A DNA stretch of 64,000 bases, from the NCBI GenBank assembly GCA_015143295.1, contig CM026570.1:24993250-25057249 (forward strand), in the 5' to 3' direction. Within the stretch, counting starts at the first letter, position 1, and the number at the start of each line of letters is the position of its first letter. This DNA comes from Tetracentron sinense (Eukaryota; Streptophyta; Magnoliopsida; Trochodendrales; Trochodendraceae). A program made the translations under genes and the position numbers. The notes below the pieces were generated by a model. That model did not search any database and was not told the origin of the DNA. It saw only the letters and a program-made list of their open reading frames with translations. This document shows positions 9,011-58,480 of this stretch, piece after piece.

Positions 9011-9257
9011 GACGATCGATCGTCGATCTTGGGATGATCAAATCCATGATCTGGTAAGCTTACCCAGATTTCTATCTCCAGACGATCGATCGTCAGTGTT
9101 GGGCTATCGATCGTCCAGCTTCCTGAAAGCCATCAAATTTATGGGTTCAAGGTGATCGATCGTCAAGTTTTGGACGATCAATTGTCCAAGTTCCAGTAGG
9201 TTGCCCAGGTTTCTGGGTTCATGATGATCGATCGTTGCCATGTGGCGATCGATCGTC
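9011..9257 (-). repeat. Palindrome array A (GACGATCGATCGTC type), 4 pairs
   Basis: Palindromic 14-mers begin at 9011, 9081, 9151 and 9223, i.e. every 70-72 bp. Each has a second, more variable copy 21-22 bp further on (9033, 9103, 9173, 9244). Perfect copies are at 9011 and 9081; others carry one or a few changes. Between pairs a degenerate sequence with TTCTGGGTTC recurs, so the whole block is an old tandem array of a ~70-bp unit holding two palindromes. It lies upstream of the LTR-A TATA box. Confidence 0.85.
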
Positions 9258-9440
9258 AATCCCAGTTTTTTATCCTTTTCACCTGCAGACCCCCTTGGGG
9301 TATTTCGGTCATAACTTTTGACTCGTTTGTCGAATTTTGACGATTCAACTTGTGTTGGATTCGTCTTTCGAAAAGGAAAATTTTTGGTATATTAGAATCT
9401 TCTAATTCTTCTTTATTTATTAATTGGACTACATAAAAGG

Positions 9441-10269
9441 CAGATTGACTATGAAAACGTTGTTCATTAGGTACGAAAAGTTCCGAGGTGCTATAGGAGA
9501 TCACATGGCAATGTGAGTGGCTAGTCCTGAAAAAGCTACCTCGGGTCGTAATAACCGAGAGACGATGCATGATTCTCGTCGGTCTAACTGGCTCAGCAGT
9601 CTATGCACTACTCCGAGTCCTTCGTCAGTTTGGACTCCCTCAGTATATCTCAGTGATAGACTAGTAAGAAAATGATTGTGTCAGCTTCACAGTGCACTCT
9701 GAGAGCCTTACTCGACGCTTCCAGTCTGATTGGCGAAGCTCCAGACAAGAACAGTGGCCAGACTTTGTGGTTACATCAGGACCACCGACTGATGTAGTAT
9801 ACCAACTGTGGGCGGAAGATTCTGACATTCCATCTTGCATGCCCGCACCAAGGGAACTGCCCATACCAGCAACAACTCCATTAAGAGGAACCATACTCAT
9901 AGGTGAAATGGTGGTTCCCTGTAGAGAAATTTTCCTAGAGAGACGGCTACTGATCTAGGAGAGGGAGATAAGACTACGGAAGGCCCAACAAGCGTTCAGG
10001 CAGCAGGAAGCCGAACGGAACTACAAACTCCAAGTCATGTAGTGACAGGTCGAGCAGCTTGAGCAGACAGTCCAAGCACTCCAGAAGAGACGCAGAAGCG
10101 ACACCCAAGAAACAACCATCATCAGGGCCTAGCTACACTTCTATCAAGAGCAGTTTGACAGTGCAAAGGTTGAGATGATCTCCCGGATCCTACAGTTCGG
10201 ATTCGAAATGTTTAAGGCTACCGAGGCAATTGACAACATGGAGGTTGAGGTCACATCCCTCCAGTAGCA
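9441..10269 (+). pseudogene. Tat/Ogre-type extra ORF, C-terminal part
   Basis: After LTR-A the + strand again reads like the DUF7745-type ORF: a segment with VYALLRVLRQFGLPQYIS (about 9600-9650), then VTSGPPTDVVYQLWAED (9770-9820), then a charged coiled-coil-like stretch with many Glu, Gln and Arg (ERRLRKAQQAFRQQEAERN, about 9962-10020, and QLEQTVQALQKRRR, about 10057-10100). Stops at 9661, 9957, 10039 and 10130 show that it is dead. A globular domain followed by a coiled coil fits the extra ORF of these elements; function unknown. Confidence 0.55.
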
Positions 10270-16582: not shown

Positions 16583-16590
16583 TATTTATA
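16583..16590 (-). promoter_or_regulatory. TATA box of LTR-B
   Basis: Minus strand reads TATAAATA. It is 57 bp downstream, in element sense, of the nearest palindrome at 16648, nearly the spacing seen in LTR-A and the Tekay LTR. Confidence 0.65.
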
Positions 16591-16647: not shown

Positions 16648-16752
16648 GACGATTGATCGTCAGTCTGGACGATTGATCATCCACGTTCCTGAATGTTATC
16701 AAGATTTCTAGGTTACTGATGATCGATCGTCTTCTTGGGACGATCGATCGTC
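16648..16752 (-). repeat. Palindrome array B (GACGATCGATCGTC type), 2 pairs
   Basis: Palindrome-like 14-mers start at 16648, 16668, 16718 and 16739. The pairs are 70 bp apart and members of a pair are 20-21 bp apart. The copy at 16739 is perfect. This is the same motif and geometry as array A, with two rather than four units. Confidence 0.85.
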
Positions 16753-20518: not shown

Positions 20519-21413
20519 GATTGAACTCTGAATTCAGAAATTTAAAATTTGGATTTGGAATTGGAATTTAAATTAAATCTTATCTTGAATTTGTATTGGA
20601 ATTTGAAATTGAAATTTGAGTTGAATTTGAATTGAATATGATTTTCAGTTTGATTTTTGAATTTTGGATTATGAAATGAATTTAGAATTTGAAATCTGGG
20701 TTGAGTTTTAATTGAATTTGAATTTTAGTTTGGTTTTTGAATTTTGAATTTGGAGTTTGAATTAAATTTGAATTTTGAATTTTGAAATGAATTTGGAATT
20801 TGAATTGAATTTCAAATCTGAGTTGAATTTGAGTATGTTATTTGACTTGAATTTGAATTTTGAATTTTAAAATTTGGAATGAATTTGAATTTAATTTAAG
20901 TTTGAATTTGGAATTTTAAAATGAATTTGAACTTTGATTTTGAATTTGAATTTGAATTTGAATTTTGTATTTTGCATTTTAAAATGAATTGGAACTTGAA
21001 TTGAATTTGACTTTGAATTTGAATTGAAATTTGCAATTTGAATTTTAAAATAAATTTGAACATTTATTTTGAATTTAAATTTGCATTTTGAATTTGGGTT
21101 GGATTTGAATTTGAACTTGAGTTGAATTTGACATTGAATTTGAAATTTGAAATTGAAATGTTATTGAATTTAAAATTTGAATTTGAAACTTGAGTTGAAT
21201 GTTATTTGAATTGAATTTGAATTTGGAATGTTAAAGAATTTGAATTTGGAATGTTATTGAATTTAAAATTTGGATTTGAAACTTGAGTTTAATGTTATTT
21301 GAATTAAATTTAGATTAAATTTGAACTGAATGTAATATGAATTTAGAATTTGAATTGAATTTGAATATGATTATTGAATTTTAACTTTGGAGTTTGAATT
21401 GAATTTGAAAGGG
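20519..21413. repeat. Degenerate (GAATTT)n satellite-like block
   Basis: About 0.9 kb is built almost wholly of GAATTTGAATTT-type hexamers with insertions such as GAAATTTGAA and GAATGTTATTT. Longer sub-units (for example TTTGAATTTGGAATGTTA near 21220 and 21245) indicate local higher-order duplication. Confidence 0.9.
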
Positions 21414-22885: not shown

Positions 22886-23430
22886 TTTTTGCCTTTTTGA
22901 TTTTGTATGTTTTTTTTAAATTGTATTTTTTATATTTTTTGGGGTGTAAAGTCCATGTTTTTTGTGTTGGCATATTCCGGTGTCAAAACAAGTGAGTCTA
23001 GGTGTCTAGGTGTGTGTCTTGTGTCATTACCTTCAAGCATCCACGCCAAAGCGAAGTTGAAGACCAAAGAAGACCGGTTGATCCACTCGGTTAATCATTC
23101 CCTTCATAGGATGGTAAGTGACCTAGATACCATGTGACCATAGGTGGGATTTGACCTAAAATAATCCTAACATGATGCCTTAGGTGGTAAGTGTCCTAGT
23201 CTAATCATACGGACCCTAGGTGATGAGATAAGTAGTGCAAAACTTGTTTTAAAATTCTGAAATTTTCTGATATTTTTCAAAAAACCAAGGTTGCTTGCGA
23301 GAGGCATATCTCCCAAACCGTAACTCAGATTTTGCTCTATAACATGTCAAATCGACCGGGTCGAAAAGAAATAAAATTTCATGAAGGGACCGAGAACTAA
23401 AAACAAAGATTTAAAATCGTTTTTAGCCTC

Positions 23431-23590
23431 AGGGTCGACCCTGGCCGTTTAGGATTGACCCTGAAGAGAGGAAATTTAGTATGGGCTTTTTGGACAGAAT
23501 GTTAGTTTTTTTAGGGTCGACCCTAAGAGACCTTTTGGTAGACCGAAGTGGCATGTTGGGTCGACCAATGGATCCCCATGGGTTGACCCT
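23431..23590 (+). repeat. Palindrome array D1 (AGGGTCGACCCT type)
   Basis: Perfect 12-mers are at 23431 and 23513. Variant copies start at 23451, about 23535, 23557 and 23579. Neighbours within groups are 20-22 bp apart. The array lies upstream of the LTR TATA box. Confidence 0.85.
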
Positions 23591-23679
23591 GATATGGGGG
23601 TTTTGCTAAAATGATTCTTTGGTTCCTTCTTTGGTTTTTAACCTATTTTAGCAACTTCTAAGCTTCGTTTTCACTTCCC

Positions 23680-23690
23680 TATTTATATAG
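23680..23690 (+). promoter_or_regulatory. TATA box of solo LTR D1
   Basis: TATTTATATAG lies about 90 bp after the last palindrome. The equivalent box in D2 is TATATATAG at 27505-27513, also about 91 bp after its array. Confidence 0.6.
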
Positions 23691-24464
23691 AACTCTTCCA
23701 CTTCGTGGAGTACAACTTAGGGAGTGTGTGGAGAGGGTTTTGAAGTTCCTCCAGAGGTCATAAAACCTCTGGAAATTGGTGCTCTCCTCCCCTGTTGTTA
23801 GTACACAAAACCTAGAGTTTACAAGCCAAAAGTTTCAATATTGCTTGTTTGGACTTGTGCATTGAAGGAGTCCATCTAGGTGATGATTCTTATCAAACCA
23901 TCAACCCGTTATGGATAGAACACCTTGGCCAGAGTATTCCGGAGCCTTTGCGAAGAAGATCGATCCGAGAAGGATTGTGGTAGAGTGATTTGGTCGGGGT
24001 AATCTGAAGCCGTCATTGACGGAGATCGATCGAAAGATCGTGGACTATTTTTGAGACACAAAGAAAAGTACAAGCGGCCATGGTTGATCTCGGGACTTGT
24101 GAGTACGTGATGAATTTTCAAGGCGTGGAGGACTAAGAACTAAAGGATTGTAGTGTCGAGTCCGAATGAGTCAAGTTCAAGTCTTGTAAGTTCTTGTTTA
24201 CTTTGTCTTAGTGGATTCTCATGGCTGGACTAAGTCCTGTGATTTTCCCGGAAGGGTTTCCACATAAAAATCCTTGTGTTGTGGTTTGCTTAGTTTTTCT
24301 TATTCCGCACTTAAAGTACACCATCCCTTAAGTTAATAACTTAATTGTTAAAAATATAAAAAGGGTAGATAGACTTATAGGAAAACCGATCCATCCCCTT
24401 ACCTTATGAGATTCTCAACTCAAACATTGAATTGAGGTTCACCGAATTAAGATCTTTCATGGGG

Positions 24465-25283: not shown

Positions 25284-25431
25284 TGCGATCTTTCGCAATA
25301 GAAGTGCGATCTATCGCAATGGTAGTGCAATTGATCGCAATGTAAGGGCGATCGATCGCACACAGGCAAGTTTTTGGAATTTCTTTTGGGTTTAAGTGCG
25401 ATCTATCGCACTATAGGTGCAATTGATTGCA
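25284..25431 (+). repeat. Palindrome array C (TGCGATCGATCGCA type), + Tekay LTR
   Basis: Fourteen-mers start at 25284, 25305, 25326 and 25347, exactly 21 bp apart with 7-bp spacers (ATAGAAG, ATGGTAG, ATGTAAG). Two more start at 25397 and 25418, again 21 bp apart, after a 50-bp step. Arms are mostly TGCGAT and ATCGCA with one or two changes per copy. Confidence 0.9.
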
Positions 25432-25486: not shown

Positions 25487-25495
25487 TATAAATAG
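25487..25495 (+). promoter_or_regulatory. TATA box of the + Tekay LTR
   Basis: TATAAATAG lies 56 bp after the last palindrome of array C. A transcript start would be expected near 25520. Confidence 0.65.
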
Positions 25496-26986: not shown

Positions 26987-28287
26987 TGTAAAGTCTATGT
27001 TTTTGTATTGGCATATTCCGGTGTCAAAAGAAGTGAGTCTAGGTGTCTAGGAGTGGTTCTTGTGTCATTGTCGTCAAGCATCCACGACAAGTGATCTTGA
27101 AGCCTCATCACTCACAGTGGCTCAAAAGTTGGAATTAAGAAAGAGACCTAGTTGACCCTATGATACCTCATGAAAATGTTCATTCATCATTAAAAATAAG
27201 TCAAATTAGAGAAGGGTTGATAGGAGAATGCATTCAATGTTTAAAAAGATGAAAAACCAAAAAAAAAATGCAACTCAGGGTTGACCCTGACCGTTTTGGG
27301 TCGACCCTGAAGAGCCCAAGATTTGTACCAGGTTTTTTGGCAGGGAATAGGTTTTGTGAGGGTCGACCCTGAGGACCATCTGGTCGACCGAATGTGCCTC
27401 ATAGGTCGACCCTGATATAAGGGTTTTGCTAAAATGATTCTTTGGTTCCTTCTTTGGTTTTTAACCTATTTTAACAACTTCTAAACACCGTTTTTGATTC
27501 CCTTTATATATAGAACCCTTCCAGTTCATGGAGAACAACTTAGGGAGTGTGTGGAGAGTATTTTTAAGTGTCTCCAGAGGTCATAAAACCTACGGAATAT
27601 ATTTTTCTCCTCTCCTTTTGTTAGTGCATTAAACCTAGAGTTTTCAAGCCCAAAGTTCCAATTTAGCTTGTTTGGACTTGTCCTTTGAAGGAGTCCATCT
27701 AGGTGATGATTCTTATCAAACCATCAACCCGTTCTGGATAGAACACCTTGGCCGGAGTGTTCCAGAGCCTTTCCAAAGGAGATCGATCCGAGAATGATTA
27801 TGGTAGAGTGATTTGGTCGGTGGAATCCGAAGCCGTCATTGACGGAGACCGATCGGAAGATCGTGGACTGTTTTCGAGACACGGAGAAATACGAGCGGCT
27901 ACAGTTGATCACGGGACTTGAGAGTACGTGGTGACTTTTCGAGGTGTGGAGGACTAAGAACTGAAGGATCGTGGTGTCGAGTTCGAAGGAGTCAAGTTTG
28001 AGTCTTGTAAGTTCTTGTTTACTTTGTCTTAGTGGATTCTCATGGCTGGACTAGGTCCCATGATTTTTCCCGAAAGGGTTTCCACGTAAAAATCCTTGTG
28101 TTGTGGTTTGCTTGGTTTTCCTTATTCCGCACTTAAAGTACATCATCCCTTATCTTAATATCTCAATTGTTAAAACATCAAAAAGGGTAGATAGACTTAT
28201 ATGAAGCCCTCACCATCCCCTCGAACTTGTAGATTCTCAACTCAAACCCTTGATTTGAGGTTCACCGAATTGTTTTATTTTTTTTCA
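26987..28287 (+). repeat. Solo LTR, family D (copy D2), nested in the Tekay LTR
   Basis: It starts TGTAAAGTCT and ends TTTTTCA. GTTTA precedes it (26982-26986) and follows it (28288-28292), a perfect 5-bp target duplication. It is colinear with D1 but about 0.2 kb shorter, mainly through loss of sequence after the first ~200 bp. Frames inside (27724-27912, 28201-28407) are chance frames. Confidence 0.9.
27277..27413 (+). repeat. Palindrome array D2 (AGGGTCGACCCT type)
   Basis: Twelve-mers start at 27277, 27297, 27359, 27380 and 27402, with steps of 20, 62, 21 and 22 bp. The copy at 27359 is perfect. The same grouping is seen in D1. Confidence 0.85.
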
Positions 28288-31054: not shown

Positions 31055-31620
31055 TTGCGATCGATCGCACTACCATTGCGATAGATCGCACTTCTATTGC
31101 GATAGATCGCAGTCCCTGATTCCGACTGACTTTTCCCCGTTTTGGTATTTTGACCATAACTTTTAACTTACTTATTAAATTTTGGCGATTTGACTTGCAT
31201 TTGACTCGTCTTTGAAAGGGGAACAACTTTGATATTTTACAAAAATCCTAATTTTAAGTTTTTAAAGGTCTAAATGGGATCTAAAGCTGACTAATCTACA
31301 ATTTCATCAGACAAAACATTGGAAAACCCACTTTTGACTTAGCTTAGCCTCAAAATCAGGAAAAACATTAAACAATAGCCTCGAAGAGGATTCCAATACC
31401 TTTCTAATGGTTCAAGAATCACATAATTACGATAAATTATGACAAAACTAGAGCTTCTTAAAGTTCAGGGTGTGTTAAGACCTCCCTCTCTTTACAACTT
31501 TGATTAAGCCTAGATCACACCACACTAATTAGATATAAATACACACGTATTAAAACATGATAAGGATTATAATACCCCTAATACTTGCACAAAAAGCATA
31601 AAAAGATTCGGGTCTCTACA
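31055..31620 (-). repeat. Truncated 3' LTR of the minus-strand Tekay element
   Basis: On the minus strand it begins TGTAGAGACCCGAATC at 31620, directly after the polypurine tract. It matches 38318-38868 of the 5' LTR. It stops inside the palindrome array at about 31055, so TATA box, R and U5 are missing. Three palindromes remain, starting at 31056, 31077 and 31098, exactly 21 bp apart. Confidence 0.9.
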
Positions 31621-36479: not shown

Positions 36480-38868
36480 TGTAACGACTCCAAAATCCTA
36501 CAAGGCTAAAATAGGACTTTGGAATCATCATATTTCCTTAACCTGCTTAAATCCGTGACATACAAGGCATACTAACAGGAGTCTCAAAAAATGAGGATAA
36601 TAAAATTTCAATCATAAAAAGTCAAACCATCCTGTAAAATAATAATCCATATATCATAACTCCTCATAAACGAAGTAGTCTAAAACCATCAATAGGGTAA
36701 AACAACTAAGGCAACATCAACTGAAAGTCAAAAAGTGGGATATAAACATCTCTTCCAAAAAGAAATACTAAAAAAAATCAATAGGGATGACTATCAATAT
36801 CCCTAGCCTCCTCCTCAAGAAGCTCACCTTCTTCTCCCTCTTCGGCGTACGCCTCCTCCATCCACGGTTCTTCTCCTAAACTTGAAGACAATGACAAGTC
36901 GACTGAGTATGGGATACTCAGGGGATAAACAAATTAACCACAACATAAAATAACATGAGCTATGATAATATCATAACTTAGTTTATCTATGGTTAATCAT
37001 AATGGATTCATATAACATAGCTATAGTCAGAGTGCGAAGCATATAACATGTCATAACATCATCTTAACTTGTGTACTTATGTAACCCTTATTCGTGAACT
37101 TGAACTTAACATATGCATAGACTCATACATGCATGATTCATAGTGTGTTTGTCCCGTCAACGCATAATCATAATGTTTTTATCCTGACAACGCATAATTT
37201 ATAGTGTTCGACAACACGTAGAGTGAATGTTCGTAATGGGGGATCATTCTTTCATAGCATAACATGAGTGCGACAATGCGTAGAATGGATGTTCGTAGTG
37301 GGGGATCATTCTTTCATGGCATAATTCGCAACATGTTCGTGTCCAATGCATGCATGCTTGTGAGCCAAGTGGACTCATGATACTTGAATACTTACCATGC
37401 GAGGGCACGTGTGCTTGAGTGTTGTGATTGGAATTCGAATGAGTCTTCCCTTAGGTTCCGATCTTCCTTTAGGAAACTCCGCTAGGTTACATCTTCCTAG
37501 TTAGAGAATTCCCAACGTGAAAGATTTTCTTCTAAGGTTTGACCTACCTGAATACCGATCACCATACGAAATAAATAGGGCATAATCTATCATGATACAC
37601 AAAAAATATCAATTTAATTTAGTTTCTTGATAATCAAAAACATCATACTAATATTTATCATTTTTAGACATTTCAACAAACATCTAGAGTGCGTTAATTA
37701 TGGATACTTTGCCCTTTCACATTCTTAACATTCCATCACACCATAAACCAACCACACGATCCAAACATAATCCACATCCATCCCATCCTCCATAATATTT
37801 TCCATCCTCCATACAATTCATCTATAGTATAAACCCATTTTCATCTCTAACAAGCTTAATCCATGCATAATTTGGAAAAACATACACAATCTCCTTTTCT
37901 AACATTTATATCATACTAATACTCACAAAAATCAATAATAGAGTTGAGTTAGGGAGTTTATCGACCTTAAGGATCCTTCCCTTGGGATCCAAATCGCTCC
38001 CGAGATGCTTTGTGGAAGATCTCCAAGCTGATCCTCTTCTTCTTTAAGAGAAATCCTTCTTCTCCAAGCTAAAACCCTCTTAGAACCATAGGTTCTTGCT
38101 CTCCTTATTTTCCAAATTAGGTTAGAAATGGCTTAGAACCCTAAAATCCACGAAATAGAACCCCTATTTATAGCCTAGGGGTTCAAAACCCCAAAATCTG
38201 CAACTTTTAAAAAACTGTGCGCGCTTGCGATCGATCACACTTATAGTGCGATAGATCGCACTTAAACCCAAAAAAAATTCCAAAAACTTGCATGTATGCG
38301 ATCGATCACACTTACATTGCGATCGATTGCACTACCATTGCGATAGATCGCACTTCTATTGTGATAGATCGTAGCCCCTGATTCCAACTGACTTTCCCCA
38401 TTTTGGTATTCTGACCATAACTTTTGACTAGCTTATCGGATTTTGACGATTTAACTTGCGTTGGACTCGACTTTGAAAATGGAACAACTTTGATGTTTTA
38501 CAAAAATCCTAATTTTAAGTTCTTAAAGGTCTAAATGAGATCTAAAGCTGACTAATCTGCAATTTCATCAGACAAAAGTTCTGAAAACCCACTTTTGACT
38601 TAGCTTAGACTCAAAATCTGGAAAAATATTAAACATGAACCTTGAAGAGAATTCTAATACCTTTCTAATGGTTTAATAATCACTCAATTCTGATAAACAG
38701 TGATAAAACTAGAGTTTCCTAAAGTTCAGGGTATGTTAAGACCTCCATCTCTTTACAACTTTGATTAAGCCTAGATCACACCACACTAATTAGATATAAA
38801 TACATATGCATTAAAACATGATAAAGATTATAATACCACTAATACTTGCATAAAAAGCATAAAAAGAT
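36480..38868 (-). repeat. 5' LTR of the minus-strand Tekay element
   Basis: On the plus strand it begins TGTAACGACTCCAAAATCC (LTR end) and runs to about 38868, where the last ~10 bases of the expected terminus (GGGTCTCTACA) are replaced by copia LTR sequence. Length is about 2.4 kb, within the usual range for Tekay (Del). Tandem repeats lie at about 37130-37330, a TATA box (minus-strand TATAAATA) at 38165-38172, and a palindrome array at 38226-38373. Confidence 0.9.
38226..38373 (-). repeat. Palindrome array C' in the Tekay 5' LTR
   Basis: Fourteen-mers start at 38226, 38247, 38297, 38318, 38339 and 38360, with steps of 21, 50, 21, 21 and 21 bp. It is the mirror image of the array at 25284-25431, so both number and spacing have been kept while individual bases differ. 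Confidence 0.9.
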
Positions 38869-39319: not shown

Positions 39320-39327
39320 TATTTATA
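39320..39327 (-). promoter_or_regulatory. TATA box of the SIRE-type LTR
   Basis: The minus strand reads TATAAATA, 72 bp downstream (in element sense) of the nearest palindrome at 39400. In the other LTR the same position (about 63961-63972) is mutated and no longer reads as a TATA box. Confidence 0.6.
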
Positions 39328-39399: not shown

Positions 39400-39508
39400 A
39401 CTCGACGACGAGTGAGTAGTAGTCGTCGATGAGTGGGATGACAGAACTCAAATTGAGCTTTCTGTTTTGCCACTCGTCGACGAGTTCTCTGAATTTTCAC
39501 AGAGAACT
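39400..39508 (-). repeat. Palindrome array E (ACTCGTCGACGAGT type) in the SIRE-type LTR
   Basis: Palindrome-like 14-mers start at 39400, 39421 and 39472, with steps of 21 and 51 bp. The last is perfect. It overlaps an inverted repeat with arms GAGTTCTCTG and CAGAGAACTC (39483-39508). Confidence 0.85.
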
Positions 39509-40558: not shown

Positions 40559-40561
40559 ATT

Positions 40562-40574: not shown

Positions 40575-40586
40575 AAGATTCTACGA

Positions 40587-45010: not shown

Positions 45011-45022
45011 AGAGGGAGGTAT
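45011..45022 (+). other. Polypurine tract of the Reina-type element
   Basis: AGAGGGAGGTAT directly precedes the 3' LTR. It would prime plus-strand synthesis. Confidence 0.8.
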
Positions 45023-45441
45023 TGTTAGAGTTTTAATTTGAGGAATTGTTAGAGTTGTATGGGGTCATGGCTTTTGTAATTGCTTATGTACTCCAATAGC
45101 TACTGATGTGCTCAATTAGCTAAAATAGCAAGTACCAAGTATGATATTGGCTATAATAAGGCTTTCTGGAAGCTGGTACCCGTAAGGGGTGTAAGGGTTA
45201 GTTGGGTTAGTTTGTAACAGCTAGTGACAGCTATAGGAAGTTAGTTACACAGCTGGGGCAGTTAGTTACAAGGGTAGATTTGGGGTATAAGGGTGAGAGG
45301 AATGTAACCAATTGAAAAAAAAGAAAGAAATTCAGTATTCTCTTCCTGCAACTCTATTCTTCTCTATTCTTGTATTTTCTTAAGGAGGCCTTGCCAACCT
45401 CAAACTAGCTACCATTTCTTTTATCAAATTGGTTCATTACA
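45023..45441 (+). repeat. Reina-type element, 3' LTR (419 bp)
   Basis: Same length as the 5' LTR and more than 99 percent identical. It is followed by the second GAATA (45442-45446), after which LINE sequence resumes. Confidence 0.97.
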
Positions 45442-46219: not shown

Positions 46220-49200
46220 GCTTGAAATATGGAATGATACACCAGGAGGATAAAGAATTCCAAACTGCCGCTAACTCGCTGTTATTAAGAAGATGAGAAG
46301 TTCCTTCCTCACAAGTAATAGAGCAACAATAACATTTGCTAGCCATCGGAATGCCAATGTGTTGAATGGTCAAATCTGTTGAAATAACACAGTGCATGAT
46401 TTTCCAGCAAAAGACACGAAATTTGGTAGGGATAATTGACCTCCAAACATATTTGGCCCAATCTAACTCATCCCCTTTATAACGCAACATATCTTAGGCA
46501 GTTTCAACAGAGAATTCTCTCGAGGAATTAGAGGTCCAAACATACGGTCCTTATATCGTCAATGGTAGAAGGAGTGAGGAATTAACTTACCTGCGAAAGA
46601 TCCCAGTTACCTTCTTCATTAATCATCTGAGCTATAAGCGGTTGACTATGAGGAGTTGTAGATGCCATAGTGCCAACAGACAAACCAGAAATTTATTTTA
46701 GCTCCATTATCAAAAAGAACTGAGGTGTTAGAAAGCATCAAGTGAAAAACTTCGCAAATAACAAACCATAATTTAGAAGAACCTCTGGTGGGCAATGCAT
46801 TCCACACATGATCTATGCAATATTTGGCTTTGAAGAATCAAGCCCAAAGACAATCTGAAGTATATATGCGCCATGCTTGTTTTACACAAAAAGCCTTCGA
46901 AAATTCAGCGAACTTTCTAATACCTAGACCACCTTCTGTACAGGCCAAAGTACATTTTTTCCATCTAAACCAATATCGATGCCTACTCACTTCAAAGTTA
47001 TTCCAAAAAAATTTGCCAAAATTTTATCAATTTTTCCAGTAATTCCAGAGGGTATAGTAATACCTGAGATGATGTGGATTGGTATCGAAGAAAAGACATA
47101 ATTGATAAGAATTAGTCTCCCACCAGCAGAAAGAAGTTTTTCGGACCACCCACTAACACGATTTTGAATTTTCTCAATAAGAGGAATGAAGTAAGATATT
47201 TTCTATCTACCTTTCATCAACGGAACTCCCAGGTAGATAAGAGGAAAGTGTTTAAATTGAAACCTAGTTCTGTTGGAGATGTCTCTTTTTCTGGCTATAG
47301 ATAGATTGTCTGAGCAATAAAGAGAACTTTTATTCTTTGCGCAGAAGAATCTTCATATTTGGAGAGAAAATCAGTAATTCTTTTGATACTTTTAGCACTA
47401 CCCTTGCAGAAAATAAGAGTATCATCCGCAAATAAAAGATGGGTGACTGCCAAACCATTTCTCCCCATAACAAAAGAATAATTCGGGTGGGAAGATATAA
47501 CTTTAAGTCCTCTACATAGGACTTCTTCAGCCAATATAAAAAGAGTAGTAGATAAAGGATCACCTTGACGTAAACCTCTGGAACTAGTGAAAAAACCATG
47601 AAGAGACCCATTGATAACAACCGAGAAGCTTTGATTCTGAAGATATCCCTGAATCAGACTGATAAATTAACCCAAACTTCTTCAAAACTTCTATAATGAA
47701 GTTCCATTCCATTCGATCATACACCTTCACCGTATCAAACTTAATAATGATGTTCCCGCCGAAGACTTTCCTGTCCACTTCATTAACCATTTCCTGAGCA
47801 ATAGTTATATTATCAGTGATGTTCATTCCTTTAATAAACCCTAATTGCTCTTTAGAAACAATTTTAGGGAAAATAGGGGCCAACTGATCAGCTAATATTC
47901 TGGAGAATACTTTATAAAAAATTTGCATAAGATGACAGATTTATAATCAGAAAAAGTCGATCGATCCTCACATTTAGCAATCAGGGCTATGGCTGTAGCA
48001 TTAACTGATTTAAGAATAATCGGATTATAAAAGAAATAATGAACAACCCTAATTAGATCAGCCTGAATAATATCCCAGCAAGCTCTAAAAAAATTATCAT
48101 CGAAACCATCCGGACCAGGAGCACTATCTTCTGAGAGACTGAAAACCACCTGTTTAACCTCTTCCAAAAAGGGAACAGAGGCAAGAAAACAATTATCTTC
48201 ATCAGTAATCATTGGAGGAATAAAGTTTATAATGTTATGATGAATAGGATTTTGAGAAGATGTAAGAAGATCTTGAAAATACTTAGAAGCTTCATCACCA
48301 ATATCTTGTTGATTATCTATCCAATCCCCCAAGGCATTTTTAATTTTTTCAATGCTATTCTTTTTCTTTCTTTGATTAGCAATGGCATGAAAAAACTTCA
48401 TGTTGCTGTCGCCTTCTTTGAGCCATTTAATCCTGGATTTTGCTTCCAAAATATCTCCTATTGCATCATCACCTGCTGTAAGTTATCCTTCAGAGTAGTA
48501 AGCAAAGCAATCTCAGTAGCACAAATTTTCTCTTCCAGCTCTTTGATACGAACAAAAATATTTCCAAAGGTATCTCTATTCCAACTCTTAAGAAATTTTT
48601 TAATCTCTTATGCTTTAAGAAAAATCCAAGGATAGGATCTGCAACAATAGGTAAAGCCCAAGAATCTTCTACAAGCTTTTTGAAATCCGAATGGGTTAAC
48701 CACGTCTTCTGAAACTTGAAGTTGGAAGGACGACTCGTAGATCCAGTTTCAAACTTTAGAATAAGAGGAGCAGGATCTAAATTGAGCCTGGATAAATGAG
48801 AGGCCCGAGGAGCAGGTAATTTATTACTCCAAGCCACATTATATAAGACCTGGTCCAATCTGGCATAAATTTTGTTAAGACCCATTTGGTCATTGCACTA
48901 AGTGAATTTGTTACCGGTAAATCCAGCATCTATAAAACCCATGTCATTGATAAAGGCATTAAATTCTTCCATAGACCCAATATTGGGATCTCGACCTCCC
49001 ATTTTTTCCCTCAGGGAAGCAATTGCATTGAAATCACCAGCAAGAAGAAGAGAACCATGAAAATGAGATAACAGTAAAGATATATCATTCCAAAGAATAT
49101 GTCTGTCATTGCTAAGACATTTAGCATAAATAAAGCCACATCTAATAATGTATAAATCATGAATATTGACATCAATAATTAAAGCTTGATCAAGAGAAGC

Positions 49201-50056
49201 AAATAAAGAAACTTTCAACCAATCTTTCCAAAATAGCCATATTTTAGGGTGATAGAGATAACCCGGCATATTTAGCATCTTACTAAGAGAAAAAATATTC
49301 TTGAAAGACTGCATGGGTTCCATAATAGCAATCATAGAAATATTATATGTTTCCATAAGTTTCTTTAATCTAGCTTTAGAAGCTAGGTTCCCAACTCCTC
49401 TAATATTCTAAGATAGGATGCTAATCATTGGAAACTAGAGAGTTTTTTCCATCAATAAGGGAGCAAGAGCTCTAGATCGAGTTTATTCGGTCCGATGGGG
49501 GAATCCCTTTCTCTTTTTTTTAATAAACTCTTTTTCAACTTTGTTTCCTGACGAATTATTTTTCTGTTCATCTGAGCAAGAATTCTTTAGCTTCCCTTAT
49601 AAAATTTTCTCTATGCTCAAAGGGAACCGATCCTACTTTCGAATGGAATTCAGTTGAGGATGAAGAACGCCAATTAATGTCTCTGAAAGGCTTGTTAAGA
49701 GGAGGTAGAGAATTTTGCAATCTCTTCTCTAGGTTATGTATGTTCGACTGAAATGTAATAATAAAATTTGTATCGTTGTCATCAAAGGAAGTGTATTGGT
49801 CAGCAACAAAATTCTCTGTTTGAGTGGAAGCAATTTGAAGCTGTTGAGTGTTGCCTGACAAGGGGTTACTTTGCTGCTCTATGCTTCTCTGGGAGCCATC
49901 TCCTTAGGATCTCGAGGATTATTGTCATTCAAATATATTTCCTCTTCAATTCCTAAGATCGAAATAGTTTCTGCACTGTTAGAGTTAGAAGCTTCGTTTT
50001 TTTATCCCAGCAACCTCTCCATTCGGGTTTTGATCATCTTCTATCATCAATCCTGA
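45830..50056 (-). repeat. LINE internal duplication, copy 1
   Basis: This stretch repeats 50057-54284 almost perfectly. It contains the end of ORF1 (49861-49568), an ORF2 start at 49428, endonuclease (49356-48898), a linker frame (48885-48490), RT pieces (48449-47295) and the zinc-binding region (46490-46095). Differences that I can see from copy 2 in the central part are single-base changes in homopolymer length. Confidence 0.95.
46095..49428 (-). pseudogene. LINE ORF2 (endonuclease-RT), copy 1
   Basis: Starting at 49428 (MISILS, then a stop where W is usual, then NIRGVGNLASKARLKKL). The endonuclease carries MIAIMEPMQS and LLLAGDFNAI. RT begins in 48449-47892 (APGPDGFDDNFFRACW) and continues in 47928-47584 (LGFIKGMNITDNI, IIKFDTVKVYDRMEW). 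The catalytic FADD box reads HLLFADDTLIF in 47534-47295. RT zinc-binding domain in 46490-46095 (FRVFCWKIMHCVISTDLTIQ). Several stops and frame changes interrupt it, so it is inactive. Confidence 0.9.
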
Positions 50057-50319
50057 ACAAATTTACCGTTGTGATCTCAAATCATCCCTCCTCCTCCTGC
50101 ATATTTACCAGGATTACCTTAGACGCACCATCTATATTTCAGCTTAAATTTGGTATGAGGAAAAATCAATAAACCATGATCACCCGGAGTCTACTGATAG
50201 GAGTTTGTCTAGTAGGAAATAAAGGTGATAATCTAATTTTTATTATCATTGACTGATCCTAGATCACACCCTTTCTAGTGATGAGACCAATAAGAGTTCT
50301 TGCATTAAGCGAAATACCT

Positions 50320-53300
50320 TCATGTTTCCTTCGACATCTTTCTATCCAAATCTCCCAAACTATCAGGCAACAAGATGAAGAAATCATTATTCCTTGAAGA
50401 AGTCGCTCTAAACCATCTTGTAAGGGTACAATGAATAGAGTCATGCTTGAAATATGGAATGATACACCAGGAGGATAAAGAATTCCAAACTGCCGCTAAC
50501 TCGCTGTTATTAAGAAGATGAGAAGTTCCTTCCTCACAAGTAATAGAGCAACAATAACATTTGCTAGCCATCGGAATGCCAATGTGTTGAATGGTCAAAT
50601 CTGTTGAAATAACACAGTGCATGATTTTCCAGCAAAAGACACGAAATTTGGTAGGGATAATTGACCTCCAAACATATTTGGCCCAATCTAACTCATCCCC
50701 TTTATAACGCAACATATCTTAGGCAGTTTCAACAGAGAATTCTCTCGAGGAATTAGAGGTCCAAACATACGGTCCTTATATCGTCAATGGTAGAAGGAGT
50801 GAGGAATTAACTTACCTGCGAAAGATCCCAGTTACCTTCTTCATTAATCATCTGAGCTATAAGCGGTTGACTATGAGGAGTTGTAGATGCCATAGTGCCA
50901 ACAGACAAACCAGAAATTTATTTTAGCTCCATTATCAAAAAGAACTGAGGTGTTAGAAAGCATCAAGTGAAAAACTTCGCAAATAACAAACCATAATTTA
51001 GAAGAACCTCTGGTGGGCAATGCATTCCACACATGATCTATGCAATATTTGGCTTTGAAGAATCAAGCCCAAAGACAATCTGAAGTATATATGCGCCATG
51101 CTTGTTTTACACAAAAAGCCTTCGAAAATTCAGCGAACTTTCTAATACCTAGACCACCTTCTGTACAGGCCAAAGTACATTTTTTCCATCTAAACCAATA
51201 TCGATGCCTACTCACTTCAAAGTTATTCCAAAAAAAATTTGCCAAAATTTTATCAATTTTTCCAGTAATTCCAGAGGGTATAGTAATACCTGAGATGATG
51301 TGGATTGGTATCGAAGAAAAGACATAATTGATAAGAATTAGTCTCCCACCAGCAGAAAGAAGTTTTTCGGACCACCCACTAACACGATTTTGAATTTTCT
51401 CAATAAGAGGAATGAAGTAAGATATTTTCTATCTACCTTTCATCAACGGAACTCCCAGGTAGATAAGAGGAAAGTGTTTAAATTGAAACCTAGTTCTGTT
51501 GGAGATGTCTCTTTTTCTGGCTATAGATAGATTGTCTGAGCAATAAAGAGAACTTTTATTCTTTGCGCAGAAGAATCTTCATATTTGGAGAGAAATCAGT
51601 AATTCTTTTGATACTTTTAGCACTACCCTTGCAGAAAATAAGAGTATCATCCGCAAATAAAAGATGGGTGACTGCCAAACCATTTCTCCCCATAACAAAA
51701 GAATAATTCGGGTGGGAAGATATAACTTTAAGTCCTCTACATAGGACTTCTTCAGCCAATATAAAAAGAGTAGTAGATAAAGGATCACCTTGACGTAAAC
51801 CTCTGGAACTAGTGAAAAAACCATGAAGAGACCCATTGATAACAACCGAGAAGCTTTGATTCTGAAGATATCCCTGAATCAGACTGATAAATTAACCCAA
51901 ACTTCTTCAAAACTTCTATAATGAAGTTCCATTCCATTCGATCATACACCTTCACCGTATCAAACTTAATAATGATGTTCCCGCCGAAGACTTTCCTGTC
52001 CACTTCATTAACCATTTCCTGAGCAATAGTTATATTATCAGTGATGTTCATTCCTTTAATAAACCCTAATTGCTCTTTAGAAACAATTTTAGGGAAAATA
52101 GGGGCCAACTGATCAGCTAATATTCTGGAGAATACTTTATAAAAAAATTTGCATAAGATGACAGATTTATAATCAGAAAAAGTCGATCGATCCTCACATT
52201 TAGCAATCAGGGCTATGGCTGTAGCATTAACTGATTTAAGAATAATCGGATTATAAAAGAAATAATGAACAACCCTAATTAGATCAGCCTGAATAATATC
52301 CCAGCAAGCTCTAAAAAAATTATCATCGAAACCATCCGGACCAGGAGCACTATCTTCTGAGAGACTGAAAACCACCTGTTTAACCTCTTCCAAAAAGGGA
52401 ACAGAGGCAAGAAAACAATTATCTTCATCAGTAATCATTGGAGGAATAAAGTTTATAATGTTATGATGAATAGGATTTTGAGAAGATGTAAGAAGATCTT
52501 GAAAATACTTAGAAGCTTCATCACCAATATCTTGTTGATTATCTATCCAATCCCCCAAGGCATTTTTAATTTTTTCAATGCTATTCTTTTTCTTTCTTTG
52601 ATTAGCAATGGCATGAAAAAACTTCATGTTGCTGTCGCCTTCTTTGAGCCATTTAATCCTGGATTTTTGCTTCCAAAATATCTCCTATTGCATCATCACC
52701 TGCTGTAAGTTATCCTTCAGAGTAGTAAGCAAAGCAATCTCAGTAGCACAAATTTTCTCTTCCAGCTCTTTGATACGAACAAAAATATTTCCAAAGGTAT
52801 CTCTATTCCAACTCTTAAGAAATTTTTTAATCTCTTATGCTTTAAGAAAAATCCAAGGATAGGATCTGCAACAATAGGTAAAGCCCAAGAATCTTCTACA
52901 AGCTTTTTGAAATCCGAATGGGTTAACCACGTCTTCTGAAACTTGAAGTTGGAAGGACGACTCGTAGATCCAGTTTCAAACTTTAGAATAAGAGGAGCAG
53001 GATCTAAATTGAGCCTGGATAAATGAGAGGCCCGAGGAGCAGGTAATTTATTACTCCAAGCCACATTATATAAGACCTGGTCCAATCTGGCATAAATTTT
53101 GTTAAGACCCATTTGGTCATTGCACTAAGTGAATTTGTTACCGGTAAATCCAGCATCTATAAAACCCATGTCATTGATAAAGGCATTAAATTCTTCCATA
53201 GACCCAATATTGGGATCTCGACCTCCCATTTTTTCCCTCAGGGAAGCAATTGCATTGAAATCACCAGCAAGAAGAAGAGAACCATGAAAATGAGATAACA

Positions 53301-53655
53301 GTAAAGATATATCATTCCAAAGAATATGTCTGTCATTGCTAAGACATTTAGCATAAATAAAGCCACATCTAATAATGTATAAATCATGAATATTGACATC
53401 AATAATTAAAGCTTGATCAAGAGAAGCAAATAAAGAAACTTTCAACCAATCTTTCCAAAATAGCCATATTTTAGGGTGATAGAGATAACCCGGCATATTT
53501 AGCATCTTACTAAGAGAAAAAATATTCTTGAAAGACTGCATGGGTTCCATAATAGCAATCATAGAAATATTATATGTTTCCATAAGTTTCTTTAATCTAG
53601 CTTTAGAAGCTAGGTTCCCAACTCCTCTAATATTCTAAGATAGGATGCTAATCAT
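50320..53655 (-). pseudogene. LINE ORF2 (endonuclease-RT), copy 2
   Basis: Same domain order as copy 1. ORF2 starts at 53655. Endonuclease 53583-53125 with LLLAGDFNAI. Linker 53112-52717. RT 52627-51809 is open over 272 codons here because one extra A near 52141-52148 keeps the frame that is broken in copy 1. FADD box in 51759-51556. Zinc-binding domain 50715-50320. Upstream of it, 51245-51063 reads the thumb region FFWNNFEVSRHRYWFRWKK. The copy stops just after the first RNase H motif. Confidence 0.9.
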
Positions 53656-53708
53656 TGGAAACTAGAGAGTTTTTTCCATCAATAAGGGAGCAAGAGCTCT
53701 AGATCGAG

Positions 53709-54089
53709 TTATTCGGTCCGATGGGGGAATCCCTTTCTCTTTTTTTTAATAAACTCTTTTTCAACTTTGTTTCCTGACGAATTATTTTTCTTGTTCATCT
53801 GAGCAAGAAATTCTTTAGCTTCCCTTATAAAATTTTCTCTATGCTCAAAGGGAACCGATCCTACTTTCGAATGGAATTCAGTTGAGGATGAAGAACGCCA
53901 ATTAATGTCTCTGAAAGGCTTGTTAAGAGGAGGTAGAGAATTTTGCAATCTCTTCTCTAGGTTATGTATGTTCGACTGAAATGTAATAATAAAATTTGTA
54001 TCGTTGTCATCAAAGGAAGTGTATTGGTCAGCAACAAAATTCTCTGTTTGAGTGGAAGCAATTTGAAGCTGTTGAGTGTTGCCTGACAA
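53709..54089 (-). pseudogene. LINE ORF1, C-terminal part (copy 2)
   Basis: A 126-codon Gln/Asn/Lys-rich open piece with no named domain, located between the ORF1 zinc knuckle and ORF2. Its shorter twin is at 49861-49568. A frame change separates them from the DUF4283 part. Confidence 0.6.
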
Positions 54090-54499
54090 GGGGTTACTTT
54101 GCTGCTCTATGCTTCTCTGGGAGCCATCTCCTTAGGATCTCGAGGATTATTGTCATTCAAATATATTTCCTCTTCAATTCCTAAGATCGAAATAGTTTCT
54201 GCACTGTTAGAGTTAGAAGCTTCGTTTTTTTATCCCAGCAACCTCTCCATTCGGGTTTTGATCATCTTCTATCATCAATCCTGAGCCTGTACCAGCATAA
54301 TTGGATTCCTTATCTATTATTTTATGGGAGATAACCTTCTCTAAATGCAGATCTTGAGTCCCATTCATACAACCTTCCTCTTGAACAGCAATTGAAGAGT
54401 CTTGGTTTAGATCATGAATCTGATCTGGAATAGTGACTTCAGGAGGGTTCAGGATGGAGGTTTTATCAGAAGGAATCTCATCCGAATGGAATTTTTTTA

Positions 54500-55834: not shown

Positions 55835-55853
55835 TTTTCCTCCCCCTTGGCAT
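55835..55853 (-). other. Polypurine tract of the SIRE-type element
   Basis: The minus strand reads GATGCCAAGGGGGAGGAAAA at the LTR edge. GATGATGCCAA followed by a G run is characteristic of SIRE-type copia elements. Confidence 0.8.
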
Positions 55854-56027
55854 CATCAAAAATATACTAAAGAAAATTAAAGTAATCAACTCATCATGTG
55901 AATGGAAAAGGATGTCATATATATATCAAAAAGATTGAGGTACAAGTATGATCAGTCAACACATCCAAAAATAGAAAATAAGAACAGTAAATACATAAAA
56001 AGTAGAAAAATATAGAGGTGGTCTTCA

Positions 56028-57960
56028 TCACAACTTTTGCCTCTTCCTTGAGCTATCTGGTTTGAATGCAGTGTCCTTTCTCTTAGAAGTCTTGGACAGG
56101 TCTTGAGAGGAGTTAGAGGAGATCACATTCTCAACTGGTTGCTCTTTGGGTTGCTCTTCAGTCTTGGTTTGAGGCTGCTTAGTTGGGGGTGCTTGAGATG
56201 GAGCTGGAACTTCCACATCAGTATGGATAGGTACAAGTTCAAGCTTCTTCCTTATGCTCAGCATCTCCATAGCCACTTGATTTATTCTGGCAACCATCTC
56301 TCTAATGATAGGAGCTTGAGAATCCATTAATCCTACCATCTGTTGAATGAAGCTAGCTTGAACATTGACAGCCTTCCCCACACTAGTCATATCATCATCG
56401 AATCTGTCACTCACTACTGAGGCATCCACTGCCTTCCTCTCAATTAATGACAGTATGGAGTCAACCTTGTTCTTTACAACCTAACTAGATATCTCAATCT
56501 CTGTCAGTCTGGGCCCAATCACCTCATCTCTCTTCTTTCGCTCTGCCTGGATAATCTCCATCCTGGACTTTAGAGATGACAACCTGTCTCTAGTCTCGGA
56601 CTGGAACTGAATCTGACTCTGCCTCAACTCCAACTGGAATTGTTCCATGCTAGAAGCCATGGAAGCAATCTGACCAGCCATCAAGGACATCTGCTCATCT
56701 GATGGTGGTGGCCTACTGGGAGATACAAATTGCTGCCCAGGGTCCTCATAATGATCTAAGTCCTGTCTATGTGAGGACTTAGGAATCTCTACATCAATCA
56801 TAACATCTCCCCAATCAGGTCCAGCATCAGTCTTTGTTACTGTCTCAACAACAATCTCTTGGTCCTTTGGTAGCCCTAACTCAGTTGCTGCAGATGAAGG
56901 ACTGATAGGGGAATGGGTAGGAGAATGAGTAGGAGATGGAATGGGATCAAGGGAAGAAGGGAGTGGATTTGAGGAGTCACGAATGGAAGTAGAAGGAGGT
57001 ACAGGAGGAGTAGAGTGAGAAGGTGGAGGAGCAGAAGTGGGAATAGAAGGGTCTGGAATGGTTTGAGATTTTGGAACCCAAACTGGCCTCAATCAATGTG
57101 TTTCTCATACGCGTAATGGTAGCCTTTGAATACACATCTGAGTCGATCAGATTTTTCTTGTCATGATAGACAGACAAGGGGACTTTGAACTGTTTAAAGA
57201 CTCTGGTTAAGGCAAGACCAAAAGGCAATCTGGCTGAAGTTTTCTTGGCTGCATCTCTCATGACATGCATGATAATGAATGTAAGATCAACATGCTGGGT
57301 GGTTAGGATGCACCAAATTAGAAAGACATCAAAGAAGGTTATAAAATCTCTACCACCACCTCGAGGTACAATATCATAGGTGATAATGTGGTGAGCTAAC
57401 CTAGCATCAAGGGTGAGATCCTTGAGCTTAGGAAGGGACAGACTTTGTGTTGTCCTTGTTGACACACAATATGTTTAAAACCTCAAAAACATTAAACCCC
57501 TCATGGGAGACCCGTTGGTTAATGGTATAAGTTTGGAAGTCCCCACTAGGTAATTTAAGAATGGATTGAAGTTCATCATGGTTAAAAGAGATTTTCTTGG
57601 CATGAGCATATGAATTTATAGTTTTTGTGGTTTTATCATAGGTAAGATGGGAGTAGAATTACTTGACAAGGTCTGGGTACATGGATTCATGAAATCCTAA
57701 GAACCTATGCCACTTAAGGGCTTGGAATTTTGAAGCAATTACATCTAAGCCCATATCCTTGAATAAATCCAAATATGGAACCTTAACAAACATAGGTTCT
57801 TTCTTGATGAAGATCCTTGTTTCTCTTGGGCTTCCTTGGTCTGGAATAGGTTGGGAGCCTCTACCTGGGACGGTTCTTCAGCTTAATTTGCCCTTTTCTC
57901 TGTTGCCGTGGCTTTCTCCTTGGTATGCGGCACTGATGGGGTTTTTGTCGTTGGAGTCAT
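56028..57960 (-). pseudogene. SIRE-type third ORF: plant-transposon-protein-like, proline-rich, coiled coil
   Basis: A likely start is at 57960 (MTPTTKTPSVPHTKEKA). After frame breaks, text near 57740-57480 has KWHRFLGFHESMYPDLV and KISFNHDELQSILKLP, and 57465-56977 has HIITYDIVPRGGGRDFITFF and ARLPFGLALTRVFKQF. This pattern resembles the 'putative plant transposon protein' domain. The 57092-56481 piece is proline/serine-rich and then turns into a heptad-like coiled coil (MEQFQLELRQSQIQFQSET). The 56429-56028 piece has another helix and a basic tail (KRKDTAF..SSRKRQKL). SIRE elements are known for an extra ORF with proline-rich and coiled-coil parts after RT, sometimes called env-like; no membrane segment is evident here. 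Function unknown. Confidence 0.65.
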
Positions 57961-58480
57961 TGATTTAAGAGTAATGAAATAATTTAGAATAAGTTTGGAG
58001 GAGAATAGAAGAAGGTTTGAAGGTTTGGGAATGCAAGGGAATGAGGATTTGAAAAGATGAACTGTGAATCAAAAAAGAAATTAGGTTTTAATTTATTGAT
58101 TTGTGGTCACTCGTCGACGAGTAAGTTGGACTCGTTGCCCAGTGTCTTTGAAATCTTAGACTTTTAAGTCACTTGTCACCGAGTGGCTGAAGTTTGGCTA
58201 CTGGAATGGGCACTCGTCAACGAGTACAAGTCTATACTCTGACTCGTCGCCGAGTCCATACACAGAAACTAAATTTTCTTGATTTTTAAGTTCAAATCCA
58301 ATATCTTAAGCTTTTAAATCTTCCTTTTAATAAACATAGGATTATTATTAGATATTCAAAACCACAGTTCAAGTAGATATACAAAGTAAACACATTCCAA
58401 CATTCATCATATATCAACATGAAACATATTCAACCATTATTATCAATTTTTGAACTTAGGCATATTTTCATTTAATGTCA
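57961..58480 (-). promoter_or_regulatory. Spacer upstream of ORF3 with a palindrome array; candidate internal promoter
   Basis: Between the end of RNase H and ORF3 lies about 0.5 kb of noncoding sequence. It contains palindrome-like 14-mers of the LTR type (ACTCGTCGACGAGT) at 58109, 58130, 58171, 58212 and 58242. A pyrimidine-rich leader follows up to the ORF3 ATG. I do not see a clean TATA box (an AATAAATTAAAA stretch is near 58090). Promoter function is inferred. Confidence 0.5.
58109..58255 (-). repeat. Palindrome array E' upstream of ORF3
   Basis: Copies start at 58109 (perfect), 58130, 58171, 58212 and 58242. Steps are 21, 41, 41 and 30 bp. Variants such as ACTCGTTGCCCAGT, ACTTGTCACCGAGT, ACTCGTCAACGAGT and ACTCGTCGCCGAGT keep the outer arms. 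The motif is the same as in the LTR at 39400-39485. Confidence 0.85.

What the first reader, a model, noticed from the sequence alone, without database searches (positions are those of the whole stretch)
9011..58255. Several LTR groups share an architecture: 21-bp-spaced palindromes just upstream of TATA
Seven arrays (9011-9257, 16648-16752, 23431-23590, 25284-25431, 27277-27413, 38226-38373, 39400-39485) sit at the same place in LTRs from at least three lineages: the Tekay type and its LTR-A/B relatives, family D, and SIRE-type copia. The motif differs between groups (GACGATCGATCGTC, TGCGATCGATCGCA, AGGGTCGACCCT, ACTCGTCGACGAGT), but all are palindromic, have TCGA or ATCGAT-type centres, contain CpG, and are repeated at 20-22 bp, two helical turns. 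TATA follows at 53-57 bp in the Tekay-like LTRs, 72 bp in the SIRE type and about 90 bp in family D. Retained geometry with changing sequence suggests selection for a symmetric DNA site on one face of the helix, possibly a factor that co-evolves with each family, or a chromatin/methylation signal. I know of no standard name for this feature.
Basis: partly seen in the sequence, partly recalled or inferred. Interest (0 to 1): 0.88.

Follow-up and report, generated by a model that had tools for sequence, protein, structure and literature searches.

The report
Helix-phased palindromes in retrotransposon promoters
Some jumping-gene families in one plant genome carry rows of mirror-symmetric DNA sites just upstream of their promoter, mostly spaced by whole turns of the DNA helix, and the layout is kept while the letters change symmetrically, which looks like docking sites for an unknown paired protein.

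Summary
The seven arrays lie where stated; two more exist (31055-31111, 58109-58255). Exact pairs of the core palindromes at 14-44 bp number 1224, 1625 and 202 (T, A, S motifs) against 0 for the reversed pattern. Of the 150 places listed, 149 have spacings of 19-22, 29-31 or 40-43 bp: two, three or four helical turns. In 31 non-redundant loci, motif-blind palindrome distances form a comb of about 10.2 bp. Tekay-type arrays have 20-21 bp steps, a 49-50 bp gap and TATA 59-66 bp after the last centre. T2 and A keep the layout but differ in the outer bases on both arms, while spacers are near-random. The Sirevirus-like arrays match the published 'repeated motif' (RM) boxes, so the feature has a name there. 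I found no description of it in Tekay-type LTRs, of helical phasing, or of symmetric switching, in a limited library. Best reading: U3 enhancer of dyad sites for a dimeric DNA-binding protein. The factor is unknown; RNA/siRNA roles are not excluded. Family D could not be tested genome-wide.

The parts
9011..9257 (-). T1 array, 7 units of GACGATCGATCGTC type plus one decayed unit that I placed at 9038 from its spacing; pairs 21-22 bp apart, pairs separated by 49-50 bp
8947..8954 (-). TATA box of T1, 63 bp after the last centre
   Evidence: read from the sequence
16648..16752 (-). T2 array, 4 units, spacings 21, 50, 20
16583..16590 (-). TATA box of T2, 64 bp after the last centre
23430..23592 (+). 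D1 array, AGGGTCGACCCT type, 6 units, spacings 20, 62, 22, 22, 22 (second unit from the 14-mer scan, the others from the GGTCGACC core scan)
23684..23691 (+). TATA box of D1, 99 bp after the last centre
25284..25431 (+). A1 array, TGCGATCGATCGCA type, 6 units, spacings 21, 21, 21, 50, 21
25487..25494 (+). TATA box of A1, 62 bp after the last centre
27276..27415 (+). D2 array, 5 units, spacings 20, 62, 21, 22
27505..27512 (+). TATA box of D2, 97 bp after the last centre
26987..28287 (+). D2 solo LTR (TG...CA) inserted in the A1 LTR, flanked by GTTTA on both sides
   Evidence: junctions read; BLAST break points
31055..31111 (-). B1, truncated array of the A motif, 3 clear units 21 bp apart
38226..38373 (-). 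A2 array, 6 units, spacings 21, 21, 21, 50, 21
38165..38172 (-). TATA box of A2, 60 bp after the last centre
39400..39485 (-). S1 array in the Sirevirus-like LTR, ACTCGTCGACGAGT type, 3 units, spacings 51, 21
39320..39327 (-). TATA box of S1, 79 bp after the last centre
58109..58255 (-). SL array of the S motif in the linker, 5 units, spacings 30, 41, 41, 21, upstream of the extra 3' ORF region
56031..57474 (-). Extra 3' open frames at the env position; one (56980-57474) matches PF20167 at 41 bits, below its curated cut-off of 45
55840..55847 (-). Sirevirus PPT octamer AGGGGGAG downstream of the extra frames
   Evidence: octamer from PMC2829016
31831..34680 (-). Gypsy protease, RT, RNaseH, integrase and SH3 pieces of the element that carries A2 and B1

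Best explanation
The arrays are U3 enhancers built of dyad-symmetric binding sites, the same kind of thing as Sirevirus RM boxes. Each 12-14 bp palindrome binds a homodimeric DNA-binding protein. Neighbouring dimers sit a whole number of helical turns apart (mostly two), so they line up on one face of the DNA, bind cooperatively and act on the TATA box downstream at a family-typical distance. Families keep the layout but change the outer half-site bases on both arms together, as expected if the recognising protein or its preference changes. Shown here: symmetry, short-range phasing, TATA distance, symmetric difference between families, near-random spacers. Inferred: protein binding, cooperativity, effect on transcription. 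The factor is not identified.
For: Exact core pairs are frequent and phased: 1224 (T), 1625 (A) and 202 (S) at 14-44 bp, reversed-pattern control 0 in all five answered searches; 149 of the 150 listed places fall on 19-22, 29-31 or 40-43 bp. Motif-blind distances in 31 non-redundant loci: 71 at 19-22, 8 at 29-31, 31 at 39-43, 23 at 48-52, 39 at 68-73, and 0 at 15-17, 23-28, 32-38, 44-47, 53-57 and 74-78. Periodicity: 22 Tekay-type arrays, 10.15 bp, 109.7 of 148 against a null maximum of 41.9; 9 S arrays, 10.25 bp, 33.2 of 39 against 19.8 (200 random placements each). Outer arm bases, not used to find the units, agree within arrays at 646/720 while spacers agree at 461/1157, chance 0.25 (Tekay-type; S only 8/8 and 7/14). 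Outer pairs are complementary in 149 and 156 of 173 units against shuffle maxima of 103 and 144. T2 and A units sit at 155/134/84/64 and 154/133/83/62 bp from TATA, agree at 0-1 of 16 outer bases, yet 7-8 of 8 outer pairs stay complementary. TATA lies 59-66 bp after the last centre in 15 of the 16 Tekay-type loci with a TATA hit (22 examined).
Against: No binding, expression or methylation data were used. Between close copies A1 and A2 the units agree less (74/84) than the spacers (60/64); 7 of the 10 unit differences are CpG-type. Pairs 3-7 of the Tekay-type units, and all seven pairs of the S units, show no covariation above shuffles, partly because units were found by their core. Of 50 listed T pairs at 44-74 bp only 17 lie within 2 bp of a multiple of 10.25; the gap is 49-50 and repeats give 69. 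In the window alone the phasing of the long gaps depends on which arrays are used (p 0.001 to 0.54). TATA was not found in 6 of 22 Tekay-type loci and is at 102 bp in L001. Copies within a family are related, so counts are not independent events. At least two LTR regions in the window have no CpG palindrome array: the Reina-like LTR pair and the stretch before the copia PBS at 1547, the latter with three AT-rich or CpG-free palindromes.
Confidence: 0.6

Rival explanations
1. RNA role: the palindromes form hairpins in read-through or genomic RNA (U3 is at the RNA 3' end) and are templates or targets of small RNAs, as proposed for maize Sireviruses; or they serve RNA-RNA pairing.
For: All nine array stretches tested fold better than shuffles, z -2.7 to -5.8. 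Passages in PMC5311732 and PMC10760457 say that maize Sirevirus palindromes are sRNA hotspots and have strong predicted structure.
Against: Repeated palindromes pair with each other whatever their role, so folding does not discriminate. Whole-turn spacing, with 29-31 bp as well as 20-21 and 40-43, is not a 21-nt register and is not needed for hairpins. Not excluded as an additional effect.
Confidence: 0.2
2. Anti-silencing array: an element-encoded or hijacked protein binds the repeats to remove methylation, like VANC of VANDAL transposons, and motif and protein co-evolve.
For: VANC motifs are clustered, differ between families and evolve by tandem repeats (PMC5735166 passages). Arrays are CpG-richer than the window (o/e 0.56-1.92 against 0.43, D lowest).
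Against: VANC21 motifs lie in one orientation and no palindrome is mentioned in the paper's main text (0 occurrences). I saw no candidate extra gene in the A element, but did not search for one systematically.
Confidence: 0.1
3. Passive tandem repeats: 21-bp and 71-bp units multiplied by slippage or template switching, with palindromes persisting by chance.
For: A1 spacers are alike (TRF unit of 21 bp, 80% matches), and T1 is a loose 71-bp higher-order repeat, so duplication supplies copies.
Against: Within arrays, spacers agree at 0.40 where outer arms agree at 0.90. Two groups without clear homology share whole-turn spacings including three turns in S. T2 and A keep places and symmetry although their spacers agree only at 0.41-0.43 between flanks of 0.79-0.80 and 0.68-0.75.
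Confidence: 0.06

Closest known systems
Sirevirus repeated-motif (RM) boxes, Bousios et al. 2010 (PMC2829016; passages and sections 9 and 19 seen)
   Same: Palindromic, repeated, CpG-bearing boxes in the LTR a short way upstream of TATA, motif differing between elements, extra copies before the env-like gene. Listed RMs include CGGTCGACCG (Vitis) and ACAATCGATTGT (Tnd-1), close in style to the motifs here.
   Different: Reported for 13 Sireviruses, absent from classic Ty1/copia; Ty3/gypsy is not mentioned in what I saw. All but Tnd-1 have a CGG-CCG core, which none of the motifs here has. Helical phasing and in-place symmetric switching do not appear in the passages I saw.
Maize Sirevirus LTR palindromes, Bousios et al. 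2016 (not held; known from passages in PMC5311732 and PMC10760457 and from recall)
   Same: Palindrome-rich cis region, variable in sequence, with palindromes kept
   Different: Emphasis on small RNAs and hairpins; Ty1/copia only in what I saw
Variable 5' CpG island of Del/Tekay LTRs, Cruz et al. 2014 (PMC4029996; passages seen)
   Same: Same lineage as the probable carrier; [quoted passage not shown]
   Different: Found in monocot groups and reported absent from eudicot Del; the word palindrome does not occur in its main text
VANC target motifs of VANDAL transposons, Hosaka et al. 2017 (PMC5735166; passages seen)
   Same: Clustered short motifs in non-coding TE DNA that change between families together with a binding protein
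   Different: DNA transposons, nine-base motif in one orientation, element-encoded binder known

Membership tests
Sirevirus RM boxes (S array) | Palindromic repeated motif in the LTR shortly upstream of TATA | tested here: met
   S1 units 79 bp before TATA; other S-type copies 76-78 or 92 bp
Sirevirus RM boxes (S array) | In env-bearing elements, extra copies upstream of the env gene | tested here: met
   SL array 58109-58255 lies between the pol pieces and the extra 3' frames. That these frames are env is inferred from position; the one Pfam match is PF20167, below cut-off.
Sirevirus RM boxes (S array) | CGG-CCG core | tested here: not met
   ACTCGTCGACGAGT lacks it; Tnd-1 is also an exception in the paper
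Sirevirus RM boxes (S array) | At least eight copies per element | tested here: inconclusive
   3 units in the LTR at 39.4 kb and 5 in the linker at 58 kb; that both belong to one element is inferred, and the other LTR is cut by the window edge
Sirevirus RM boxes (S array) | Carrier is a Sirevirus: copia order, PPT octamer AGGGGGAG in the linker, PBS junction CA/ATTGG/TATCAGAGC | tested here: inconclusive
   Copia gag and pol pieces and one PPT octamer at 55847 fit; the PBS junction near 63500 does not read as the published one
Sirevirus RM boxes (T/A arrays) | Carrier is a Sirevirus (Ty1/copia) | tested here: not met
   A element has gypsy RT, RNaseH and SH3_Tf2-1 pieces
Sirevirus RM boxes (T/A arrays) | Palindromic repeated motif in the LTR shortly upstream of TATA | tested here: met
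Tekay/Del chromovirus (A element) | Ty3/gypsy pol | tested here: met
   the integrase pieces score below their Pfam cut-offs
Tekay/Del chromovirus (A element) | C-terminal chromodomain | tested here: inconclusive
   Pieces of the frame-broken end gave no Pfam match; resemblance is by recall only
Tekay/Del chromovirus (A element) | Long LTR (Del range 1.1-4.8 kb in PMC4029996) | tested here: met
   about 2.4 kb between BLAST break points and PBS
VANC-like anti-silencing system | Protein that binds the motif and removes methylation | not testable with these tools

The most novel reading that the evidence does not exclude
Plant LTR retrotransposons of two superfamilies (Tekay-type Ty3/gypsy and Sirevirus Ty1/copia) share or have converged on a helix-phased array of dyad sites bound by a fast-changing factor. 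The recognition sequence switches symmetrically in place between families (GA/TC, TG/CA, TA/TA, GG/CC around one core), so the arrays record a contest between elements and a specific host or element DNA-binding protein.
Probability: 0.25. Interest if true: 0.85.

Novelty: new variant of a known kind. Interest (0 to 1): 0.62.

Why it matters
RM boxes were described in 2010 without an identified binding factor, and none is named in the passages I read. Helical phasing in LTRs of two superfamilies argues for a protein array on DNA rather than a passive repeat, and gives a sharp, cheap test: half-turn against full-turn insertions. The symmetric family-by-family variants are ready-made baits for finding the factor and for asking whether retrotransposon families compete through it.

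Tried and rejected
Simple 21-bp tandem repeat: disfavoured because spacers are near-random and three-turn spacings occur. 21-nt small-RNA register: disfavoured by the 29-31 class and the 49-50 gap. Homology of D or S to the Tekay-type promoters: nearly all cross-group scores lie inside the range of 100 shuffles; T2-S1 in the core promoter exceeds it weakly (57 against a maximum of 49), so a distant link there is not excluded. Heat-shock elements in the 50-bp gap: looked at by eye only, not consistent. Relatives in viral contigs: none. Host name: RT neighbours at 57-75% identity among the 120 best of 8000 capped hits, the named ones mostly Tanacetum, Cucumis, Helianthus and Drosera, suggest a eudicot but do not name it. 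Unsupervised sample of the genome: not possible. Literature: listings (up to 20 titles each shown) gave me no paper on palindrome arrays in Tekay or other gypsy LTR promoters; this is a limited open-licence library, and the 2016 maize paper is not held.
Full report
What is there. The window is a nest of plant LTR retrotransposons. The seven listed arrays and two more (31055-31111, 58109-58255) consist of 12-14 bp palindromes with CpG. Perfect 14-bp palindromes with a CpG number 9 in the window, against a shuffle mean of 0.6 and maximum of 3; eight are array units and one, at 7095, is not.

Groups. T (9.0 and 16.6 kb) and A/B (25.3, 31.1, 38.2 kb) are homologous LTRs: T2 and A share a 79-80% identical block upstream of the array and a similar core promoter. 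The A element has gypsy protease, RT, RNaseH, integrase and SH3 pieces and LTRs of about 2.4 kb, so Tekay/Del is likely; the chromodomain was not confirmed. D2 is a solo LTR, 26987-28287, flanked by GTTTA (read); D is unclassified. S is a copia element on the minus strand with gag (62579-63079), pol pieces, extra 3' frames and the PPT octamer at 55847; it resembles a Sirevirus, though its PBS junction does not read as published.

Layout in the window. Spacings in order along the LTR or window: T1 21,50,22,49,21,70, the 70 being 49+21 if a decayed unit at 9038 is accepted; T2 21,50,20; A1 and A2 21,21,21,50,21; D1 20,62,22,22,22; D2 20,62,21,22; S1 51,21; SL 30,41,41,21. In one search one D1 unit was placed 2 bp off (23539 instead of 23541). 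With five representative arrays, 13 of 23 adjacent spacings are 20-22, against a null mean of 2.4 and maximum of 9 in 5000 placements. Helical phasing of the window arrays: random-placement p 0.001 in eight of nine array choices and 0.007 in one; when only the long gaps are jittered p is 0.001-0.054 in eight and 0.54 in one.

Same genome. The window lies in a 1.16 Gb genome held by the tool. Forward counts of exact core pairs: T at 17-21 bp 840, T at 14-44 1224, T at 44-74 1704, A at 14-44 1625, S at 14-44 202. The control, the pattern read backwards, is 0 in all five. About 50 forward places are listed per search; those of the last four are tallied. T 14-44: 19-22 (33), 40-43 (17). A: 20-22 (41), 31 (1), 37 (1), 40-42 (7). 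S: 20-21 (38), 29-31 (9), 40 (1), 42 (2). T 44-74: 49-51 (13), 62 (2), 64 (4), 68-73 (31). The listed places are the first on the contigs, not a random sample.

Loci. Of 45 loci held, 31 were kept; 14 sharing at least 30% of 31-mers with a kept one were dropped. Motif-blind palindrome distances form a comb with empty troughs. L001-L004 and L016-L035 were chosen through a pair at 17-21 bp, which biases that pair; the others through pairs at 14-44. The best period is 10.15 bp for 22 Tekay-type arrays and 10.25 for nine S arrays, far above 200 random placements. The label 'Tekay-type' for the 22 rests on the motif; short conserved LTR strings were found in 13 of them. L001 has another context and L046, fetched later, lies in a third.

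Promoter distance. TATA lies 59-66 bp after the last centre in 15 of 16 Tekay-type loci with a hit, 102 bp in L001, and was not found in 6 of 22. For S, one search gave a hit in 9 of 11 arrays (not in L038, L039): a CTATAA-like box begins 76-78 or 92 bp after the last centre in six (L036, L037, L040, L042, L045, window S1) and 17-18 bp after it in L043 and L044; the window linker array reads CAATAAATT at that place. I take L043 and L044 as linker arrays from their likeness to the window one. The 2010 paper suspected an internal env promoter but did not identify one.

Symmetric switching. T2 and A units stand at the same distances from TATA. Their cores agree at 31-33 of 40 sites, outer dinucleotides at 0-1 of 16, spacers at 0.41-0.43 (random 36-mers aligned the same way, gaps allowed: 0.57 +- 0.09), flanks at 0.79-0.80 and 0.68-0.75. 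Yet 8 of 8 (T2, A2) and 7 of 8 (A1) outer pairs are complementary. Genome loci add TA/TA and GG/CC (L047, L048). Over 173 units in 27 arrays the two outer pairs covary; the five inner pairs do not exceed shuffles, nor do those of 45 S units. Families are few, so this is a handful of events, not 173.

Results against. Between close copies A1 and A2 the units changed at least as much as spacers (74/84 against 60/64), 7 of 10 differences being CpG-type, as expected if dead copies are methylated, but not evidence of constraint. D1-D2 units agree at 52/60, spacers 56/84, the stretch after the array 94/106. Only 17 of 50 listed long T spacings lie within 2 bp of a multiple of 10.25.

What it works like. 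The S array meets the RM description except for the CGG-CCG core; copy number and carrier are not fully settled. T/A arrays work like RM boxes but sit in a Ty3/gypsy element, so I do not file them as Sirevirus RMs. RNA folding is strong for all nine stretches tested and cannot separate an RNA role from a DNA role; whole-turn spacing favours DNA. Best estimate: enhancer of dimer sites, 0.6; the factor is open.

Literature seen: passages of PMC2829016 (plus sections 9 and 19), PMC4029996, PMC5311732, PMC10760457, PMC5735166, PMC6911290 and PMC5738225; other papers only as listings. That Tekay-type arrays, helical phasing and symmetric switching are not described rests on search in an open-licence library.

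Noticed in passing
L043 about 1351-1550, L044, and window 58090-58110 (-): Linker palindrome arrays are followed 17-18 bp after the last centre by a CTATAA box in L043 and L044 (CAATAAATT in the window copy): a candidate internal promoter for the env-position ORF.
   Followed up: partly
45830-54284: A 4.2-kb stretch is repeated head to tail at 99.5% identity, with RVT_1 pieces on the minus strand; LINE-like by guess.
   Followed up: no
40140-45441: Young Ty3/gypsy chromodomain element with 419-bp LTRs 99% identical and long open frames; its LTRs have no palindrome array.
   Followed up: partly
31050-31055: The B1 LTR of the A element breaks off inside its palindrome array, next to a 140-bp tandem repeat.
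   Followed up: no
9011-9257: T1 shows a higher-order repeat of about 71 bp, each with two palindromes 21-22 bp apart.
   Followed up: partly
L046 about 1500-1620: CGATCGATCG units spaced 21, 49 and others lie in a context without the Tekay LTR strings, with outer bases partly unlike the other families.
   Followed up: no
20546-21409: About 860 bp of degenerate AATTTG-type repeats.
   Followed up: no
38869-38873: The Sirevirus-like LTR is cut off directly against the start of the A2 LTR, which also lacks its first bases: a rearranged junction.
   Followed up: no
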